Part shown: in pieces, positions 1,988 to 10,776 of the stretch
Position numbering within the stretch: position 1 is the first letter of the stretch
How the letters are laid out: every line of letters begins with the position of its first letter
Assembly: GCA_003833135.1 (NCBI GenBank)
Contig: QZLH01000404.1
Coordinates: 82,749-94,140 of the forward strand
Length of the DNA: 11,392 bases
From: Oehlia diaphana
Taxonomy: Eukaryota; Glomeromycota; Glomeromycetes; Glomerales; Glomeraceae
Reading direction: 5' to 3'
Position numbers and translations under genes: made by a program
Notes under the pieces: model-generated
What the model saw: only the letters and a program-made list of their open reading frames with translations
Database searches by the model: none
What the model was told of the DNA's origin: nothing

Positions 1988-4900
1988 ATGAGTCAATATA
2001 TTGGTAAAGGTAAAGCATATAGGATAAATACATAATATAAATTAGAATTATTCAAAATTTTTAAAACAAATTTGCAATATAACAAAACTAGTTTCCAGTA
2101 ATATTGAAGGATTTGAAGAAAGTGGCACTAGAGAATTTGAAAGAAGTAGTATTGAGGAATTTGAAGGAATTGGTACCAAGGAACCTAAAAGTATTAATTT
2201 TTATTTATAAACAATTCAAATACTATCTATAATTATGCCTTATATAATATGAAAAATAATAAAGTACTAATATAAAAATTATATTAAATATTTAGCTCGT
2301 AAGTTAATATAATTGAATAATAATGATTTTATTTTATTCCATATAACTAAATAATTTATTTAATGATAAATAATACTATAGTTGGTAAGTTATCAAATTA
2401 TTTAAATCCTTAATTTTTCCACTTTATTTATTTACAATAACTAAATTCTTTATTTAAATAATATATATATATCTATACATAACTATTTAATAATTAATTA
2501 TGTTACAGATGGTAAGTTACAATATATATATTATATTTATTTGTTTAATATTTTGCATACTAATTCAACTGATTATATTCTTAATTTAAATAACTAGATT
2601 GTAAGTAATATATATAATTTACAGTAAATACTTTCATATTATATTTTATATTTAACTAATTAATAATTAATAATACTATAGGGTGTAAGTTATATGGCAT
2701 TTATATTTCTATCAATTATAAAAATTTAAACCAACTAATTATTTCTTTATTTAAAAAATTATTTTGTAATTTACTTTAGTTGGTAAATCATAAGTTATTT
2801 ATTTAATTCTATTATTTAATACTTATAATAATATTTACATATAATTTAAATTAACTATTTTCTTTATTTAAAAAAAACTATCAAATAATATAGGGAGTAA
2901 GTTATTTATTTAATTCTCTTATTACTTATTTTATAATATTTAGAATTTTTCTAACTATCACTGGAGGTGATGATCACCGGTGACTGAAATTATGACAATC
3001 GACCAGCATTAAAAAATATAGTGCCGGTAAAAATTGATAATTCTGGCCAACGGTGATGATCACCCCGGTGATTTGAAGTAAAAACCTAATATTTAATATA
3101 ATTTAAACTAACTAATTTCTTTATTTAAAAAAATTATTAAATAATATAGGGAGTAAGTTATTTACTTAATTTTATTATTACTTATTTATAATATTAATAT
3201 ATATTTAAACTAACTGATTTCTTTATTTAATAGATCGTAAGTTATAAGTTATTTATTTAATCCTATTATTACTTATTTACATAATATTTGCATATAATTT
3301 AAACTAACTTATTTCTTTATTGAAAAATTATTAAATAATATAGAGAGTAAGTTGTCTATTTAATTCTATTATTACTTATTTAATTTATATATTATTTACA
3401 TATAATTTAAATTATTAAATAATATAGGAAGTAAGTTGTTTATTAAATTTTATTATTACTTATTCATATATAATTTAAACTAACTAATCTCTTTATTTAA
3501 TAGATCGTAAGTTAATTCTATTGTTACTTATTTATTTAATATTTGTATATAATTTAAATTAACTAATTTCTTTATTTAAAAAATTATTAAATAATATAGG
3601 GGGTAAGTTGTTTATTTAATTCTATTATTACTTATTTATAATATTTACATATAATTTAAACTAACTAATTTCTTTATTTAATAGATTGTAAGTTATAAGT
3701 TATTTATTTAATTCTATTATTTATTGTTATAATATTTACATATAATTTAAACTAACTAATTCCTATATTTAATAGATCGTAAGTTATAAGTTATTTATTT
3801 ATTCCTATTATTTATATTTATATAATATTTCCATATAATTTAAACTAACTGATTTTTTTATTTAAAAGTAATCAAATAAAATAGGATGTAAGTTATTTGT
3901 TTAATTCTATTATTACTTATTTATATAATTTTTATGTATAATTTAAACTAACTAATTTCTTTATTGTATAGGTCGTAAGTTATAAGTTATTTATTGTTAT
4001 TTATTTATATAATATTTACATGTAATTAAACTAACTAATTTCTTTATTTAAAAAATTATTAAATAATTTAGGGAGTAAGTTATTTACTTAATTTTATTAT
4101 TACTTATTTATATTAATATTTACATATAATTTAAAGCTAACTAATTTGTTTATTTAAAAATTATTTTAATTATTTTGTAATTTATTTTAGTTGGTAAGTT
4201 ATTTATTTAATTCTATTATTACTTATTTATCATAATATCTACATATAATTTAAACTAACTAATTTCTTTATTTAAAAAAATATTAAATAATATAGCGAGT
4301 AAGTTATTTTTTATTACTCTTTTGTATAATATTTACATATAATTTAAACTAACTAATTTCTTTATTTAATAGATTGTAAGTTATAAGTTATATATTTAAA
4401 TCTATTATTAGTTATTTATAATAATATTTACATATAATTTAAACTAACTAATTTCTTTATTTAATAGGCCGTAAGTTATTAGTTATTTATTATTTAATTC
4501 TATTATTACTTATTTATATAATATTTACATATAATTTAAACTAACTAATAAATAATATAGGAGGTAAGCTATTTATTTAGTTATATTTTTACTTATTTAT
4601 ATAATATTTGCATATAATTTAAACTAACTAATTTCTTTATTTAAAATTATTATAGTGGGTAAGTTATTTATTTAATTCTATTATTACTTATCTATATAAA
4701 ATTTATACTGTATAAATTTAAACTAACTAATTTCTTCATGTAATAGATCGTAAGTTATAAGTTTTTTATTTAATTCTATTATTACTTATTCATATTATAT
4801 TACATATAATTTAAACTAATTAATTTCTTTATTTAAAAATTATTTTATAATTTGTTTTAGTTGGTAAGTCATAAGTACTATTTAATTCTATTATTATTAC

Positions 4901-7900
4901 TTATTCATATGATATTTATATATAATTTAAACTAACCAATAAATAATATAGGAAGTAAGTTATTTAATTCCATTATTACTTATTATGTAATATCTATATA
5001 TATAATATAAACTAACTAATTTCTTTATTTAAAAAATTATTTTGTAATTTAATTTAGTTGGCAAGTATAAGTTATTTATTTAAATCTATCATTACTTATA
5101 TATATAATACTTATATAATTTAAACTAACTAATTTCTTTATTTTAAAATAATATTAAATAATATAGCGAGTAAGTTATTTATTATTACTTTTTGTATAAT
5201 ATTTATATATAATTTGAATTTATTCATTTTTTTATTTTAAAAATTATTAGATAATATAGGGTGTAAGTTATTTATTTAATTTTATTGTTACTTATTTATA
5301 ATAATTACATATAATTTTATACTTTAAACTAACTAATTTCTTTATTTAAAAAATTGTTAAATAATACAGGGTGTAAGTTATTTATTTAGCTTTATTATTA
5401 CTTATTTATATAATAATTTAAACTAACTAATCTCTTTATTTAAAAAATTATTAAATGATATAGGGAGTAAATATTTATTTAATTCTATTTATTACTTATT
5501 TATAATAATTTAAACTAACTAATTCTTTATTTAATAGATTGTAAGTTATAAGTTATTTACATAATTCTATTATTACTTTATTTATGCAATATTTACATAC
5601 AATTTAAACTCTTTATTTAAAAAATTATTAAATAATATAGGGTGTAAGTTATTTATTTACTTCCATTATTACTTATTTATCATATATAATTTAAACTGAC
5701 AAATTTCATTATTTAATAGATCGTAAGTTATAAGTTATTTACTTAATTATTTATTTCTATTATTTATAAATATTGAGTATGGCTAAATATCACCACTGGT
5801 GATTGCAACCTTACCAGAATTAGAGTAGAATTTGGGCAGAATTAAAAATGTCATGAAACTCTGTCCATTAATATTTGCTAATACTGGTATGGTGAAAATC
5901 ACCTGTGATGAGATTTAGCAATGCCCTATAATATTTACATGTAATTTAAACTAACTAATTTCTTTATTTGAAAAATTATTAAATAATAATATAGGGTGTA
6001 AGTTATTTATTTAATTCTATTATTACTTATTTATAATATTTACATAAAATCTAAACTAATTTCTTTATTTAAAATTATTTTGTAATTTATTTTAGTTGGT
6101 AAGTAGTTATAGATAATACTATTAATACTTATTTATATATAATTTACATATAATTTGAACTAACTAATTTCTTTATTTAAAATTATTTAATTTATTTTAG
6201 TTGGTAAGTTATAAGTTATTTATTTGATTCTATTATTTATTATTTATATAATATTTATATAATTTGAACTAGTAACTAATTTTTTTATTTAAAAATTATT
6301 AAATAATGTAGGATGTAAGTTATTTATTTATTTTAGCTTATTTATATGATATCAATATATAATTTAATCTAACTAATTTCTCTGTTTAAAAATTTATTAA
6401 ATAATCGATATAGGGTGTAAGTTATTAATTTAATTCTATTATTACTTGTTTACTATATGATATTTACATATAATTTTAACTATCTAATTTCTTGATTTTA
6501 AAAAATTATTTTGTAATTTATTTTAGTTGGTAAGTCATAAGTTATTTATTTAATTCTATTATTATTACTTATTTATATAATATACATATAATTTAATCTT
6601 AATTTCTTTATTTAAAAAATTATTGAATAATATAGGAAGTAAGTACTTCATCATGATGTTGGACCAACTCTGAATAGCAATATTTAATAAGCATTAAAAT
6701 TTTATATTTATTAAGCAATAAATGCTTAATATATATTAAATAAGTACTAAATTATAATATTTATTAACCATTTAATTTTTACTAACATACCTTATACTTA
6801 ATAAGCACTAATAACAAATATTAATAATTACTTTGGCTAACATCATGATATTATTTATATTATATTTATATATAATTTAAACTAACTAATTTCTTTATTT
6901 AAAAAATTATTAAATAATATAGGATGTAAGTTATTTGTTTAATTCTATTACTATATATTATTTATGTATAATTTTAACTAACTAATTTCTTTATTTAAAA
7001 AATTATTTTGTAATTTATTTTAGATGGTAAGTTATAAGTTATTTATTTAATTCCATTATTATTATTTATATGTTATATATGTAATTTAATTTTATAATTT
7101 TATTATTACTTATTTATATTATATTTATATATAATTTAAACTAACTAATTTCTTTATTAAAAAATTAATTTTAGTTAGTAAGTCATAAGTTATTTATTTA
7201 ATTCTATTATTACTTATTTATATAATATTTATATATAATTTAAACTAACTTATTTGTTTATTTAAAAAATTATTTTGCGATTTATTTTAGTTGGCAAGTT
7301 ATAAGTTATTTATTTAATTCTATTATTATTTGTTTATATAATATTTATATATAATTTAATCTAACTAATTTCTTTATTTAAAAATTGTTAAATAATATAG
7401 GGTGTAAGCTATTTATTTAATTTTATTATTATTTGTTAATAATAGTATATATATACAATTTAATTTAACTAATTTCTTTATTTAAAAAATTATTAAATAA
7501 TATAGGGAGTAAGTTATTAATTTAATTCTATTATTACTTATTTATAATAATATTTATATATAATTTAGACTAACTAATTTCTTTATTTAATAGAACGTAA
7601 GTCATAAGTTATTTATTTAATTCAATTATTAATTATTTATATAATATCTAAACTAATTTAAAAAATTATTTATGATATAGCTTGTAAGGAATTTATATTT
7701 CTATTGTTATAAATTTTGCATTATATTTATTTGTCAACTGAATTTTTTTTTTAAAAAAAATATTTGTTACTTTAGTTGGTAAGTTGTAAATTATAAGTTA
7801 TTATATATATTTATCCAAAAACTAAGATTTATACTATATTAAATTCTTATTTAAATTTTAGAGTAAGTAATAATTCATTTTAGTGTAATTATAATACAAG

Positions 7901-9115
7901 CTATAATATAATTTTAACTATTTAAATTTATAGATTTGGAAAAAGTAGAAATGCAATTATAGATGATTTTATTCTTAAAAATGGATTAAAATGGATTCCT
8001 TATAGCAAATTTAAAAATGTTGAATTTCTTGTTGAAGGAGGATATGGTACTATATATAAAGCTACTTGGCTAAAGAATAATAGAGATGAAGAAATAATTC
8101 TTAAGCTCCATAAGGATTTAAATGAAAATTTGAATGAATTTTTGAAAGAAGTATGATAGTATATTAGCATATTATTTTCTATTTTTAATTTAAATTAATA
8201 TTCATTTATATTAATAAATTATTAATATCTTTATAGTGGAAATATCATACAAGTGTTTTAAATTCGAATAAAATCATATATTTTTATGGATTTACAGAAG
8301 ATCCAAATACTTCAAAATATATGGTAGTAATGGATTATGCAAATAAAGGTAATTTAAGAGTAAATTTAACAAGGATAGTTGAATATAATTGGAATCAAAA
8401 ATTATATATGTTGTACGAAATTATTTCTGGACTTAGCAAGATACATGAAAAAAATCTTATTCATTGTGATTTTCATGATGGCAATATTTTAAATCATAAT
8501 GATAAGAATAAGGATAGTTTGTATATTAGTGATTTAGGATTATGTCAACCTGTAAAATCATTTTTAAAAGAAAATGTAGGTGATATTTTTGGTGTTTTGC
8601 CATTTATGGCACCTGATGTTTTAAGATGCAAACCTTATACACCAGCAAGTGATATCTATAGTTTTTCTATGATTATGTGGGAATTTACATCTGGAGTACC
8701 ACCATTTAATAATAGAGCACATGATATTCAACTTAGTTTAAGTATTTGTAAAGGTGAACGTCCTGAAATTGTTGAAAATACTCCACAATGTTATGTAGAC
8801 TTGATGAAAAAGTGTTGGGATAAAGATCCATTAAAAAGACCAACTTCTAAAGAAGTATTAAAAATTATTGAAAAATGGATTTTCCGTTCTCATGAAATCA
8901 GTGAAGAATTAAAAAGCAACATTATGGAATTTATAAATGCACCAAATGGACATAACAATCTTGCTACTAAATCTCATTCTGAAGCATATTATACAAGTCG
9001 CTTACTTGATTTTACTGGTAAAAACTTAAATGAAATACTTGAAAGTGAAGATTCACAAGCACATGATTGTGTAATTAGTAATTCAAGTTCATTAGGTATG
9101 CACTGTAATATATAA
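1988..9115 (+). CDS. Multi-exon TKL-like protein kinase gene with a microexon array (56 predicted exons)
   Basis: Proposed exons are 1988-2003, 2092-2190, 52 microexons between 2296 and 7862, 7934-8150 and 8237-9115. The summed length is 1365 nt, so 454 residues plus stop in one continuous frame. Residues 1-38 are a short N-terminus with three acidic repeats. Residues 39-90 come from the array and are rich in Arg, Trp, Gly and aromatics. Residues from about 91 are the kinase module and its tail. The product is expected to be a soluble serine/threonine or dual-specificity kinase; no signal peptide or membrane segment is seen. ATG 1988 was chosen because the kinase exons have no in-frame Met before 8321, inside the N-lobe, and because frame arithmetic from 1988 fits. 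An alternative first-exon end at 2009 (22 nt) also keeps frame. Splicing is inferred only; the array part is far less certain than the kinase part. Confidence 0.6.
2092..2190 (+). other. Exon 2: three 24-nt repeats coding acidic 8-residue repeats
   Basis: The exon follows an acceptor AAAACTAG ending at 2091 and ends before donor GTATTAAT at 2191. Codons at 2109-2132, 2133-2156 and 2157-2180 are three imperfect copies of an eight-residue unit (GFEESGTR, EFERSSIE, EFEGIGTK). The exon ends with one base of a split codon (2190), which matches the phase needed downstream. A second acceptor, CAG at 2098, lies 7 nt further on and would shift the frame into a Leu/Lys-rich alternative that runs open through the array but hits a stop in the kinase exon. 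Confidence 0.5.
2296..3974 (+). other. Microexons 1-17 (first base and triplet)
   Basis: 2296 CTC; 2382 TTG; 2509 ATG; 2598 ATT; 2682 GGT; 2780 TTG; 2894 GGA; 3150 GGA; 3234 ATC; 3344 AGA; 3428 GAA; 3504 ATC; 3600 GGG; 3685 ATT; 3776 ATC; 3885 GAT; 3972 GTC. Each lies between an AG acceptor and a GTAAGT donor (GTAAAT after 2780). In the frame fixed by the flanking exons, each codon is built from the last base of one triplet and the first two of the next, so every intron here is phase 1. The first codon joins base 2190 with CT to give ACT (Thr). The unit ending at 3428 lacks the CTAAC motif through a local deletion. Confidence 0.6.
2943..3087. mobile_element. MITE-like element 1 (145 bp) inside array intron 7-8
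   Basis: A GC-richer fold-back insertion flanked by an exact 8-bp duplication AATATTTA (2935-2942 and 3088-3095). Inner arms at about 2957-2979 and 3051-3072 pair with few mismatches around ATCACYGG and GGTGAT words. Removing the element plus one duplication restores a 100-nt intron of normal unit sequence. An 8-bp target duplication is typical of hAT-type elements, but AATATTTA-like words are common in the array, so family assignment is tentative. No coding capacity. Confidence 0.65.
4072..5722 (+). other. Microexons 18-35 (first base and triplet)
   Basis: 4072 GGA; 4191 TTG; 4296 CGA; 4373 ATT; 4468 GCC; 4561 GAG; 4656 TGG; 4747 ATC; 4861 TTG; 4952 GAA; 5058 TTG; 5167 CGA; 5260 GGT; 5370 GGT; 5464 GGA; 5538 ATT; 5641 GGT; 5720 ATC. 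Donors are GTAAGT except GTAAGC after 4561, GCAAGT after 5058 and GTAAAT after 5464. The TTG-CGA pairs at 4191/4296 and 5058/5167 share private sequence downstream of CGA (TTTTGTATAATATTTA), so that block was duplicated as a unit. The unit ending at 5641 lacks CTAAC. Confidence 0.6.
5061..5066 (+). other. GC-AG intron donor in the array (1)
   Basis: GCAAGT follows microexon TTG 5058-5060 where GTAAGT stands after almost all others. GC-AG is the main tolerated variant of the major spliceosome and usually needs an otherwise strong donor, which AAGT plus the preceding G provides. Confidence 0.6.
5775..5926. mobile_element. MITE-like element 2 (152 bp) inside array intron 35-36
   Basis: The insertion has imperfect terminal inverted repeats: the left end starts GAGTATGGCTAAAT and the right end reads ATTTAGCAATGCCC, with inner GGTGATT and AATCACC matches. 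It is flanked by near-identical words TATAAATATT (5765-5774) and TATAATATT (5927-5935), a probable target duplication with a one-base indel. Without it the intron returns to about 111 nt. It carries no open frame. ATCACC words resemble element 1, so the two may be related. Confidence 0.6.
6650..6849. mobile_element. MITE-like element 3 (about 200 bp) inside array intron 42-43
   Basis: The terminal inverted repeats are ATCATGATGTTGGACCAA (6650-6667) and TTGGCTAACATCATGAT (6833-6849), differing by one substitution and a one-base gap. The interior repeats AATAAGCA/TGCTTAAT words in both orientations. It lies 11 nt after the donor at 6639 and leaves donor, branch region and acceptor of the host intron intact; without it the intron is about 84 nt. 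No clear target duplication is seen. Its sequence differs from elements 1 and 2. Confidence 0.6.
7294..7299 (+). other. GC-AG intron donor in the array (2)
   Basis: GCAAGT follows microexon TTG 7291-7293. Like the copy at 5061, it sits in the unit class whose acceptor is TAATTTATTTTAG-like and whose microexon is TTG. The T-to-C change could have arisen twice or been copied with the unit. Confidence 0.6.
7934..9115 (+). CDS. Kinase-domain exons: TKL-like protein kinase with family-typical C-terminal tail
   Basis: Two exons, 7934-8150 and 8237-9115, are joined in phase 0. In the 454-residue model, visible motifs are the lead-in AIIDDF...WIPYSKF, glycine loop GGYGTIYKA (about 125-133), VAIK-type lysine in IILKL (Lys147), catalytic loop HCDFHDGN (Asp240, Asn245; the usual HRD Arg is Cys), DLG in place of DFG (Asp261), and APD in place of APE (about 287-289). 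Also present are DIYSFSMIMWE, the PPF after it, and CWDKDPLKRP of the C-lobe. All catalytic residues are present, so it is probably active. The tail (LKSNIMEFINAP, then YTSRLLDF, then EDSQAHDCVI) matches the lineage-expanded kinases I know from Rhizophagus irregularis. No in-frame Met exists before 8321, so upstream exons are required. Confidence 0.9.
8151..8236 (+). other. Kinase-gene intron (86 nt)
   Basis: It begins GTATGA directly after GAA 8148-8150 and ends TTTATAG before TGG 8237. Read-through would hit TGA at once (GTA TGA). Removal joins FLKE to WKYHTS, which fits the alpha-C helix region of the kinase fold. This is an ordinary intron and not a copy of the array unit. Confidence 0.85.
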
Positions 9116-9600
9116 AAAATTAATCTTGCAAATTAATTAACATTATTTATTTATTATATATTAAAACAGATGAAAATTAATTAATTGTTTGTAAAAAAAG
9201 ATTATAATTTTTTAGGTGATATTTGATGTTATGCATTTAACAGAAATTGATTTTTATTTTATTCTTTTTGGATTTATTTAAACACTAAGGTTAGAGTACT
9301 AGTAAAATAATTTACAAGATTCTTAGTTTGTAATTTAAATAATTTCTTTTTTTTATATTTTATCATATTTAAATATTCTATTCTTTTTTAAGAATTATTT
9401 AAAAACTAAAGTTAGAGTAGTAAACATTTACAAATTCTTAGTTTGTAATTTAAATAAATCCTTTTATTTATAACTTTTCAATTATTAATTATAAATTATC
9501 AAAATAATAATAAGGATATAAAGCTATTTCTAATGTATCAAACTAAAAATAAATAATGTAAAATTTTTATACTCATTTCAAGAATCGATTGTATTTAATT
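9116..9600. other. 3' flank of the kinase gene
   Basis: AT-rich DNA without a coding region. The 3' untranslated region and cleavage site should lie here, but no position is decided; an AATAAA word occurs at 9453-9458. The 9261-9472 duplication described separately fills the middle. Confidence 0.4.
9261..9472. repeat. Direct duplication of about 95 bp with stem-forming ends
   Basis: Copy 1 is about 9261-9353 and copy 2 about 9380-9472. Both run ATTCTTTTT, TTATTTAAA, ACTAAGG or ACTAAAG followed by TTAGAGTA, a TTTACAA word, then TTCTTAGTTTGTAATTTAAATAA. Within each copy, CTAA and TTAG words pair (AAACTAA with TTAGTTT), so each can form a small hairpin. Function unknown. Confidence 0.6.
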
Positions 9601-10532: not shown

Positions 10533-10645
10533 CGCCATACTGTTCAAAAATCCCGGGTGGCCACCCTGGATGCATCCAGGGTAGCTACCCGGGATGTATC
10601 CAGAATTTACCCTGGATTACCAAACGCCGTACTGTTCAAAAATCC
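10533..10645. repeat. Direct repeat of 21 bp spanning the fold-back element's left end
   Basis: 10533-10553 and 10625-10645 match at 20 of 21 positions (CGCCRTACTGTTCAAAAATCC). The second copy lies inside the 10541-10744 element, so this is either an internal duplication of the element's end together with 8 bp of flank, or one copy inserted next to another. Confidence 0.65.
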
Positions 10646-10744
10646 AGGATGACCCTGGATACATCCCGGGTGAGCGCCCTGGATTGATCTCGGGTAACAG
10701 TTACCCTGGATGCATCCAGGGTGATCACCCGGGATTTTTGAACA
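10541..10744. mobile_element. GC-rich fold-back (MITE-like) element with 43-bp terminal inverted repeats
   Basis: The left arm 10541-10583 and right arm 10702-10744 match at 41 of 43 positions. The two differences, GGCC versus GATC, both keep a local palindrome. Each arm holds a perfect 18-bp palindrome (CCCTGGATGCATCCAGGG), and the middle holds more CCCTGGAT and CCCGGG words, plus two CCCTGGATG copies just outside the right end. The 60-residue open frame across it is a by-product of the repeats. No transposase is encoded. Similar GC-rich hairpin elements are scattered in many fungal genomes. Confidence 0.75.
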
Positions 10745-10776
10745 TTTACCCTGGATGCAAACATTACCCTGGATGA

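What the first reader, a model, noticed from the sequence alone, without database searches (positions are those of the whole stretch)
2191..7933. A 5.6-kb chain of about 53 introns separated by exactly 3-nt microexons
Fifty-one consecutive acceptor-to-donor gaps are exactly three bases and the last is one, although intron bodies vary from 71 to 148 nt and suffer insertions and deletions. The triplets themselves vary widely (19 different ones), so the spacing is kept while the sequence is not. That is the pattern expected if the mRNA is made one codon at a time. Isolated microexons of 1-15 nt are known in eukaryotes, and zero-length recursive-splice sites are known in flies and vertebrates. I know of no described gene with tens of consecutive one-codon exons.
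Basis: partly seen in the sequence, partly recalled or inferred. Interest (0 to 1): 0.96.

Follow-up and report, generated by a model that had tools for sequence, protein, structure and literature searches.

The report
Kinase gene spelled in one-codon exons
In a root-symbiotic fungus, the stretch joining the front of a protein kinase to its catalytic part is likely pieced together from 51 exons of a single codon each, and across 32 copies of this array stop codons are almost absent exactly where neighbouring triplets would meet after splicing.

Summary
In detail: 51 acceptor-to-donor gaps of exactly 3 nt and a last one of 1 nt. The gene has exon 1 (1988-2009), exon 2 (2092-2190), 52 microexons and kinase exons 7934-8150 and 8237-9115; joined, they give an open 456-aa protein kinase, while leaving all microexons out gives a stop after 49 aa. 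The genome is a Rhizophagus, probably R. diaphanus or close to it. The array recurs before related kinase exons; I read 33 chains of 5 to 69 one-codon units. The decisive evidence is evolutionary. In the one frame fixed by exon 2, the 1-nt exon and the kinase, joins of consecutive triplets (about 95 nt apart in DNA, adjacent only after splicing) make 2 stops in 812, against 33.8 expected. Triplets two apart, in reverse order or in another frame show no such deficit. The first five microexons keep near-invariant splice sites in 23 loci. So the one-codon-at-a-time reading is strongly supported, but no transcript was available. Of 22 deposited relatives none carries this linker: two have such chains in another frame, two bypass the array, 18 start at or near the kinase exon. 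Nine literature searches found no such gene.

The parts
1988..2009 (+). Exon 1, ATG to ...AAAG, leaves in phase 1 (donor GTAAAG)
   Evidence: similar ATG...AAAG|GT starts in several paralogues and, by eye, in deposited R. irregularis models P0018 and P0011
2092..2190 (+). Exon 2, E/G/S/F-rich 24-nt coding repeat, leaves in phase 1 (donor GTATTA)
   Evidence: P0001 matches it
2296..7778 (+). Array of 51 three-nt exons (first CTC 2296-2298, last TTG 7776-7778) in introns of mostly 71-148 nt with mostly GTAAGT donors and TAG acceptors
7862..7862 (+). 1-nt exon (A) that sets the kinase frame; a 1-nt exon was found in 29 of 33 chains
7934..8150 (+). First kinase exon (FGKSRN...FLKE)
8237..9115 (+). 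Second kinase exon, open to its stop; HCDFHDGN, DLGL and APD motifs present by eye
   Evidence: Pfam PF07714 3.8e-39 on the joined protein
2897..3149 (+). Long array intron (253 nt) carrying a palindromic insertion (by eye); splice sites intact
5723..5994 (+). Long array intron (272 nt) carrying an insertion (by eye); splice sites intact
6639..6922 (+). Long array intron (284 nt) carrying an insertion (by eye); splice sites intact

Best explanation
The 5.7-kb stretch is very likely a run of 53 ordinary spliceosomal introns around 51 one-codon exons and one 1-nt exon, predicted to be removed in order so that an extra linker of about 51 residues is read in frame into a protein kinase. Shown here: the junction pattern, its recurrence in related loci, near-invariant splice sites in the first five microexons, and avoidance of stop codons across consecutive triplets in the frame that connects exon 2 to the kinase. 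Inferred: splicing works by intron definition with a near-perfect donor (GTAAGT in 679 of 759 array introns) in place of exon signals. Because an acceptor and the next donor are 3 nt apart they can hardly be bound at once, so removal is stepwise and each step adds one codon to the upstream exon. Inferred for evolution: an intron-plus-codon unit is duplicated in tandem. Since each unit is 3 nt in mRNA, copy number can change freely (5 to 69 per chain read here) without a frame shift, and the linker grows or shrinks by one residue per unit. The linker is rich in R, N, D, W, F, E and K, often begins with ALDDW or a near variant (TLDDW in the window) and usually ends in FE before FGKS. I take it to be a length-variable tether between the N-terminal part and the kinase domain; that role is untested.
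For: Joined-codon stop test in 32 of 33 chains, 844 triplets: 2 of 812 joins against 33.8 +/- 4.6; k=2: 36 vs 32.7; reverse order: 30 vs 33.8; other frame: 130 vs 112.5. With introns of 60-150 nt only: T before AA/AG/GA in 1 of 728 pairs against 35.6; A 52 vs 37.9, C 22 vs 22.7, G 54 vs 32.8. Within one acceptor class, after T: 0 AA/AG/GA and 34 GG; after other bases: 82 and 69; Fisher p 1.4e-10, relatedness ignored. Interior units only, 22 chains: 1 vs 24.4. Joined window ORF of 456 aa with no stop; all microexons skipped gives a stop after 49 aa. In 23 of 23 chains where the kinase exon was located by pattern, 3n+1 nt fits the kinase frame (one inner 1-nt gap of L4746 was dropped, 10 chains not scored). 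AG and GT of microexons 1-5 are near invariant in 23 loci, against mean pairwise identity 0.833 at 636 other intron columns. Intron lengths spread evenly over the three residues mod 3 (263, 259, 237 of 759), so introns are not held in frame.
Against: No transcript was seen. Of 22 deposited relatives none carries the phase-1 linker: P0009 (R. diaphanus) and P0001 (R. irregularis) contain such chains but in frame N1N2N3; P0011 and P0018 join exons 1-2 to the kinase through 13-15 residues that look, by eye, like read-through of the last intron's end, with no triplets; 18 start at or near the kinase exon. A search of 5.8 billion proteins with the linker alone found nothing. L017 has one clean stop join (ATT|GAC); L4746 has another across a 184-nt intron. 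L4746 and L027 have junctions of 1 and 2 nt. Interior units three apart show a mild deficit too (15 vs 22.9, p about 0.02). The window alone gives only 0 vs 2.6 (p about 0.035). Three of 23 scored kinase exons (L005, L021, L023) contain stops, so some copies may be dead. If all triplets are skipped but the 1-nt exon is kept, the frame is also open, 405 aa.
Confidence: 0.9

Rival explanations
1. The array is an AT-rich satellite of dead introns inside one big intron; exon 2 is joined to the 1-nt exon, or to a cryptic acceptor in the last introns, and triplets are never in mRNA.
For: The units are tandem repeats. Skipping all triplets while keeping the 1-nt exon leaves an open frame of 405 aa. 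Deposited models P0011 and P0018 bypass the triplets.
Against: Stops across neighbouring triplets are depleted about 17-fold in one frame and order, which an untranslated repeat has no reason to show. Strong 3-nt junctions are kept in 519 of 594 motif-defined units, with 56 more by a looser pattern. What evidence supports the deposited models is unknown to me.
Confidence: 0.05
2. The triplets are spliced in but read in frame N1N2N3, using a 5-nt exon AGTAA in place of the 1-nt exon, as deposited models P0009 and P0001 seem to do.
For: Both models carry such chains; the P0009 chain matches L010 triplets almost residue for residue. In-frame stop triplets are rare: 1 of 844 against 27.3 from column frequencies.
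Against: Non-stop triplets beginning TA or TG are rare as well (8 TA/TG triplets among 185 T-initial ones, of which 1 is a stop), so that deficit is not specific to stops. Two TAA triplets outside that set were seen (L018 with a weak donor; L4746 at 2166). P0009 starts inside exon 2 in another frame and P0001 appears to read through a donor at triplet 5 to change frame (by eye). Exon 1 and exon 2 leave in phase 1. The N3|N1N2 stop deficit has no reason in this model.
Confidence: 0.03
3. Triplets are optional cassettes: the cell makes many proteins by skipping different subsets, a splicing-based diversity generator.
For: Every subset of 3-nt exons keeps the frame; chains vary widely among loci.
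Against: If skipping one exon were common, stops across triplets two apart should also be avoided; they are not (36 observed, 32.7 expected). Some skipping cannot be excluded.
Confidence: 0.1

Closest known systems
Micro-exon genes (MEGs) of Schistosoma
   Same: Many consecutive, mostly frame-neutral tiny exons in one gene, hard to annotate (passages of PMC10526429)
   Different: There 10 to 20 exons, minimum 6 bp in the text (the abstract says 3), mostly 15 bp, introns up to 5 kb, secreted proteins. Here up to 69 exons of exactly 3 nt, introns of about 95 nt, kinase linker in a fungus
Isolated microexons of plants and animals, including 1-nt exons of APC11 and VPS55
   Same: 1-nt and 3-nt exons exist and are spliced (passages of PMC8831610; of PMC13149111)
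   Different: The passages seen show single small microexons or two next to each other; here more than fifty in a row
Recursive splicing at zero-nucleotide sites
   Same: Acceptor next to donor, stepwise removal (passages of PMC13149111)
   Different: Here 3 nt are left in the mRNA at each step, and the introns are short
Fungal stwintrons
   Same: Linked introns in fungi (start of the abstract of PMC6616335); forced order is recalled
   Different: One intron interrupts a splice signal of another, with no exon between them
Expanded kinase families of Rhizophagus
   Same: Kinase domain PF07714 / PF00069 and FGKS...IDDF-like start
   Different: Five distant relatives (L049, L051-L053, L056; stretches of 351 to 411 bases) read straight into the kinase start in one exon, with no array in the stretch seen

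Membership tests
U2-type spliceosomal introns | GT-AG (or GC-AG) ends with GTAAGT-like donor | tested here: met
   GTAAGT 679 of 759 introns, GCAAGT 7, acceptors TAG 708 and CAG 51 (introns of 60-150 nt, preselected for seven listed donor forms and [TC]AG). Without that preselection: AG and GT in 23 of 23 loci for microexons 1, 2, 4, 5
U2-type spliceosomal introns | Branch-point sequence near the 3' end | tested here: inconclusive
   Exact CTAAC in 375 of 759 introns, median 36 nt from the 3' splice site; no control made
Coding microexons (15 nt or less) | Flanked by conserved splice sites | tested here: met
   Near-invariant AG and GT in microexons 1-5 of 23 loci
Coding microexons (15 nt or less) | Sequence signature of joined translation | tested here: met
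   Stop avoidance across consecutive joins in one frame
Coding microexons (15 nt or less) | Seen in transcripts | not testable with these tools
   No RNA data at hand; needs cDNA
Micro-exon genes of schistosomes | Homology, or secreted product | not tested
   Analogy only; the window protein is a kinase; no signal-peptide search made
Recursive splicing at zero-nucleotide sites | AG directly followed by GT, no bases left in mRNA | tested here: not met
   Gap is 3 nt, last 1 nt
Protein kinase (PF07714/PF00069) | Kinase domain above curated cut-off | tested here: met
   135 and 126.2 bits against cut-offs 23.1 and 31.7
Stepwise 5' to 3' splicing | Order of intron removal | not testable with these tools
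   Needs nascent RNA

The most novel reading that the evidence does not exclude
A new gene architecture: a protein segment written one codon per exon, built by tandem duplication of an intron-plus-codon unit, so that the spliceosome performs more than fifty successive one-codon additions and protein length evolves by intron copy number, in a whole kinase family of arbuscular mycorrhizal fungi.
Probability: 0.85. Interest if true: 0.96.

Novelty: new variant of a known kind. Interest (0 to 1): 0.94.

Why it matters
It tests how small an exon can be and whether exons need any content of their own. Here exons carry almost no sequence information, yet selection shows that they are joined in order dozens of times per gene. 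If confirmed, it gives a natural system for order-forced splicing by intron definition and a route by which introns lengthen proteins residue by residue. It also points to genes that gene finders misread: none of the 22 deposited relatives seen carries the linker that the evolutionary test supports. In addition, joined-codon stop avoidance is a general test for coding microexons that needs no RNA.

Tried and rejected
Retrocopies or intronless relatives that would show the joined linker: the joined pattern over exon 2 to triplet 5 gave 0 matches with up to 3 mismatches; the pattern over the last triplets to the kinase exon gave 7 matches against 7 for the reversed control. A protein query with a linker start matched mainly kinase exons. 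Nine short stretches were then read: none showed DWW before the kinase start; L049 reads NFEF before VIDEFI in one exon, a weak resemblance not followed up. The search for the phase-1 linker among deposited proteins found nothing, and P0001's chain found only itself. The frame N1N2N3 was considered and rejected (see rivals). Structure prediction was not used, because the joined protein cannot be read letter for letter from one stretch of DNA. Literature searches (aimed at schistosome genes) listed no paper whose title or abstract start describes chains of one-codon exons or this feature in Rhizophagus; only passages of four papers were opened. The library lacks most subscription papers. Morin et al. 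2019 on R. diaphanus was seen only as a reference and not looked up.

Limits of the counts: donor sets differ, and weak-donor units are missed (P0009 suggests about two in L010). L005 was left out of the stop tests; its linker reading has no stop. L4746 entered them with its downstream part only. L014 and L027 ended early by my 700-nt rule, L022 holds N, and L042-L044 lie at contig ends. One search assumed G as the base before each chain; in the window it is A. Fisher and shuffle values ignore relatedness among copies; the k=2, reversed and other-frame controls share that relatedness.

Full report
WHAT IS THERE. The window holds one gene on the + strand. Exon 1 (1988-2009) runs from ATG to ...AAAG, exon 2 is 2092-2190, then come 51 triplets between acceptor and donor sites, one single-base exon at 7862, and kinase exons 7934-8150 and 8237-9115. 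Joined, they give a 456-residue protein with no internal stop. Its residues 121-373 match protein kinase models far above the cut-offs. Leaving out all 52 microexons shifts the frame and stops after 49 residues; leaving out the triplets but keeping the 1-nt exon is open (405 aa).

WHERE IT COMES FROM. The genome is 109 Mb in 1672 contigs. Of 22 protein hits 20 are Rhizophagus irregularis, one R. diaphanus and one R. clarus. The first kinase exon of locus L010, as I translated it, reads the same after its first residue as the deposited R. diaphanus protein P0009 (by eye). From this one exon I infer that the genome is R. diaphanus or near it.

IT IS A FAMILY. Array DNA gives 409 matches, the window's own included. 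A 27-base junction pattern with up to 2 mismatches matches 783 places against 0 for the reversed pattern. The kinase exon has 40 scored matches, its own included. I read 33 chains. A 1-nt exon is found in 29 of 33, and 19 of 33 end exactly CTT-TTG-A. The longest chain has 69 triplets (L045), the shortest 5. Six of 33 begin exactly CTC-TTG-ATG-ATT-GGT, and many others with near variants. In 23 loci these first five are aligned as one-to-one copies: AG and GT are present in all 23 for microexons 1, 2, 4 and 5, and GT in 22 for microexon 3, while 636 other intron columns have mean pairwise identity 0.833.

ARE THE TRIPLETS CODING? Exon 2 leaves in phase 1, so each codon is the last base of one triplet plus the first two of the next. 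The 1-nt exon then sets the kinase frame; in 23 of 23 chains where the kinase exon was located by pattern, 3n+1 nt fits (10 chains not scored, one inner 1-nt gap of L4746 dropped). In this frame stops are avoided. Of 812 joins 2 make a stop, against 33.8 +/- 4.6 in 2000 within-locus shuffles, none as low. For triplets two apart the count is 36 against 32.7, for reversed order 30 against 33.8, for the N2N3|N1 frame 130 against 112.5. At distances 3 to 6 the counts are 27, 35, 25 and 33 against 31.4, 30.7, 29.6 and 28.5; among interior units alone, distance 3 shows a mild deficit (15 against 22.9, p about 0.02). Of the joined codons with expectation 4 or more, TAA (0 of 8.0), TAG (1 of 16.4) and TGA (1 of 9.4) are the three most depleted; the next is CAT at 0.44. 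With introns of 60-150 nt, T comes before AA, AG or GA once in 728 pairs against 35.6, while C before the same pairs is at expectation and A and G are above it. The effect holds within one acceptor class (after T: 0 stop-forming and 34 GG; after other bases: 82 and 69) and after dropping the shared ends (1 against 24.4). Triplets that lie about 95 nt apart have no evident reason to show this unless they are joined, consecutively, and translated. For the window alone the result is 0 against 2.6 (p about 0.035), so the proof rests on the family.

THE JUNCTION IS KEPT. Of 594 units found by an interior intron motif, 519 have a strong 3-nt junction, 56 one by a looser uncontrolled pattern, 6 another gap (one is 6 nt, in frame) and 13 none. 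Where a junction is lost the intron would become longer and one codon would be dropped, still in frame. Donors are GTAAGT in 679 of 759 array introns (preselected for seven donor forms), whereas exon 2 and the first kinase exon of the window use GTATTA and GTATGA.

HOW IT MOST LIKELY WORKS. Splicing by intron definition, with a strong donor in place of exon signals. An acceptor and a donor 3 nt apart can hardly be occupied together, so introns would be removed one after another, each step adding a codon to the upstream exon. This order is inferred. Tandem duplication of an intron-plus-codon unit never shifts the frame, which would explain free copy-number variation. The peptide often begins ALDDW or a near variant, usually ends FE before FGKS, and is rich in R, N, D, W, F, E and K (which assumed G before each chain; the window itself reads TLDDW). 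The shortest forms, DWWSFE (L026) and DWWTFE (L028), suggest that the variable part is inserted after the conserved W. A role as a variable tether is my inference.

WHAT SPEAKS AGAINST. No RNA was available. Of 22 deposited relatives none carries the phase-1 linker (by eye). P0009 and P0001 read such chains in the frame N1N2N3; to do so P0009 starts inside exon 2 in another frame, and P0001 appears to read through a donor. P0011 and P0018 join exons 1-2 to the kinase without triplets, through residues that look like the end of the last introns. The other 18 start at or near the kinase exon. I take these as choices of gene-prediction software, but I do not know what evidence lies behind them. 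Stop triplets in the frame N1N2N3 are rare too (1 of 844 against 27.3), but all triplets starting TA or TG are rare (8 of 185 T-initial), so the deficit is not stop-specific; avoiding a cryptic GTA or GTG donor at the acceptor is one possible reason. Some copies look damaged: L017 has one stop join, L4746 has irregular junctions, L005, L021 and L023 have stops in the kinase exon, and exon 2 of L028 seems to have lost its donor.

COMPARISON. Schistosome micro-exon genes have 10 to 20 short exons, of 6 bp or more by the text. Plants have 1-nt exons, and pairs of small exons. Recursive sites leave no base behind. None of the passages seen describes a chain of one-codon exons. Nine searches of an open-access library listed no such description; subscription papers are mostly absent. 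I rate it a new variant of microexon genes, at an extreme that amounts to a gene architecture of its own.

Noticed in passing
window 2897-3149 and 5723-5994; L015 near 3018: Palindromic insertions (GGTGATGATCACC-like in the first) inside array introns, looking like a small inverted-repeat transposon (by eye); splice sites beside them are intact. A similar stretch lies in L015.
   Followed up: partly
window 6639-6922: A different insertion with CATCATGATG-like ends in another array intron (by eye).
   Followed up: no
32 array chains: Triplets beginning TA or TG are nearly absent (8 of 185 T-initial), whether stop or not; possibly selection against a GTA/GTG cryptic donor formed with the acceptor G.
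   Followed up: partly
L026 7639-8154: The short-chain locus has an upstream stretch 30% identical to the kinase C-terminal half of P0001, perhaps a two-kinase gene or a fusion with its neighbour.
   Followed up: no
window 9255-9472: 115-bp direct repeat downstream of the gene.
   Followed up: no
window 10550-10760: Cluster of ATCCAGGGT / ACCCTGGAT palindromic repeats in otherwise AT-rich DNA.
   Followed up: no
L009 near 4696: One unit with a 6-nt exon (CTGCTG), two codons, as if a triplet had been duplicated in place.
   Followed up: no
L049: A distant kinase relative reads NFEF before VIDEFI within one exon, a weak resemblance to the linker end FEFGKS...IDDF.
   Followed up: no
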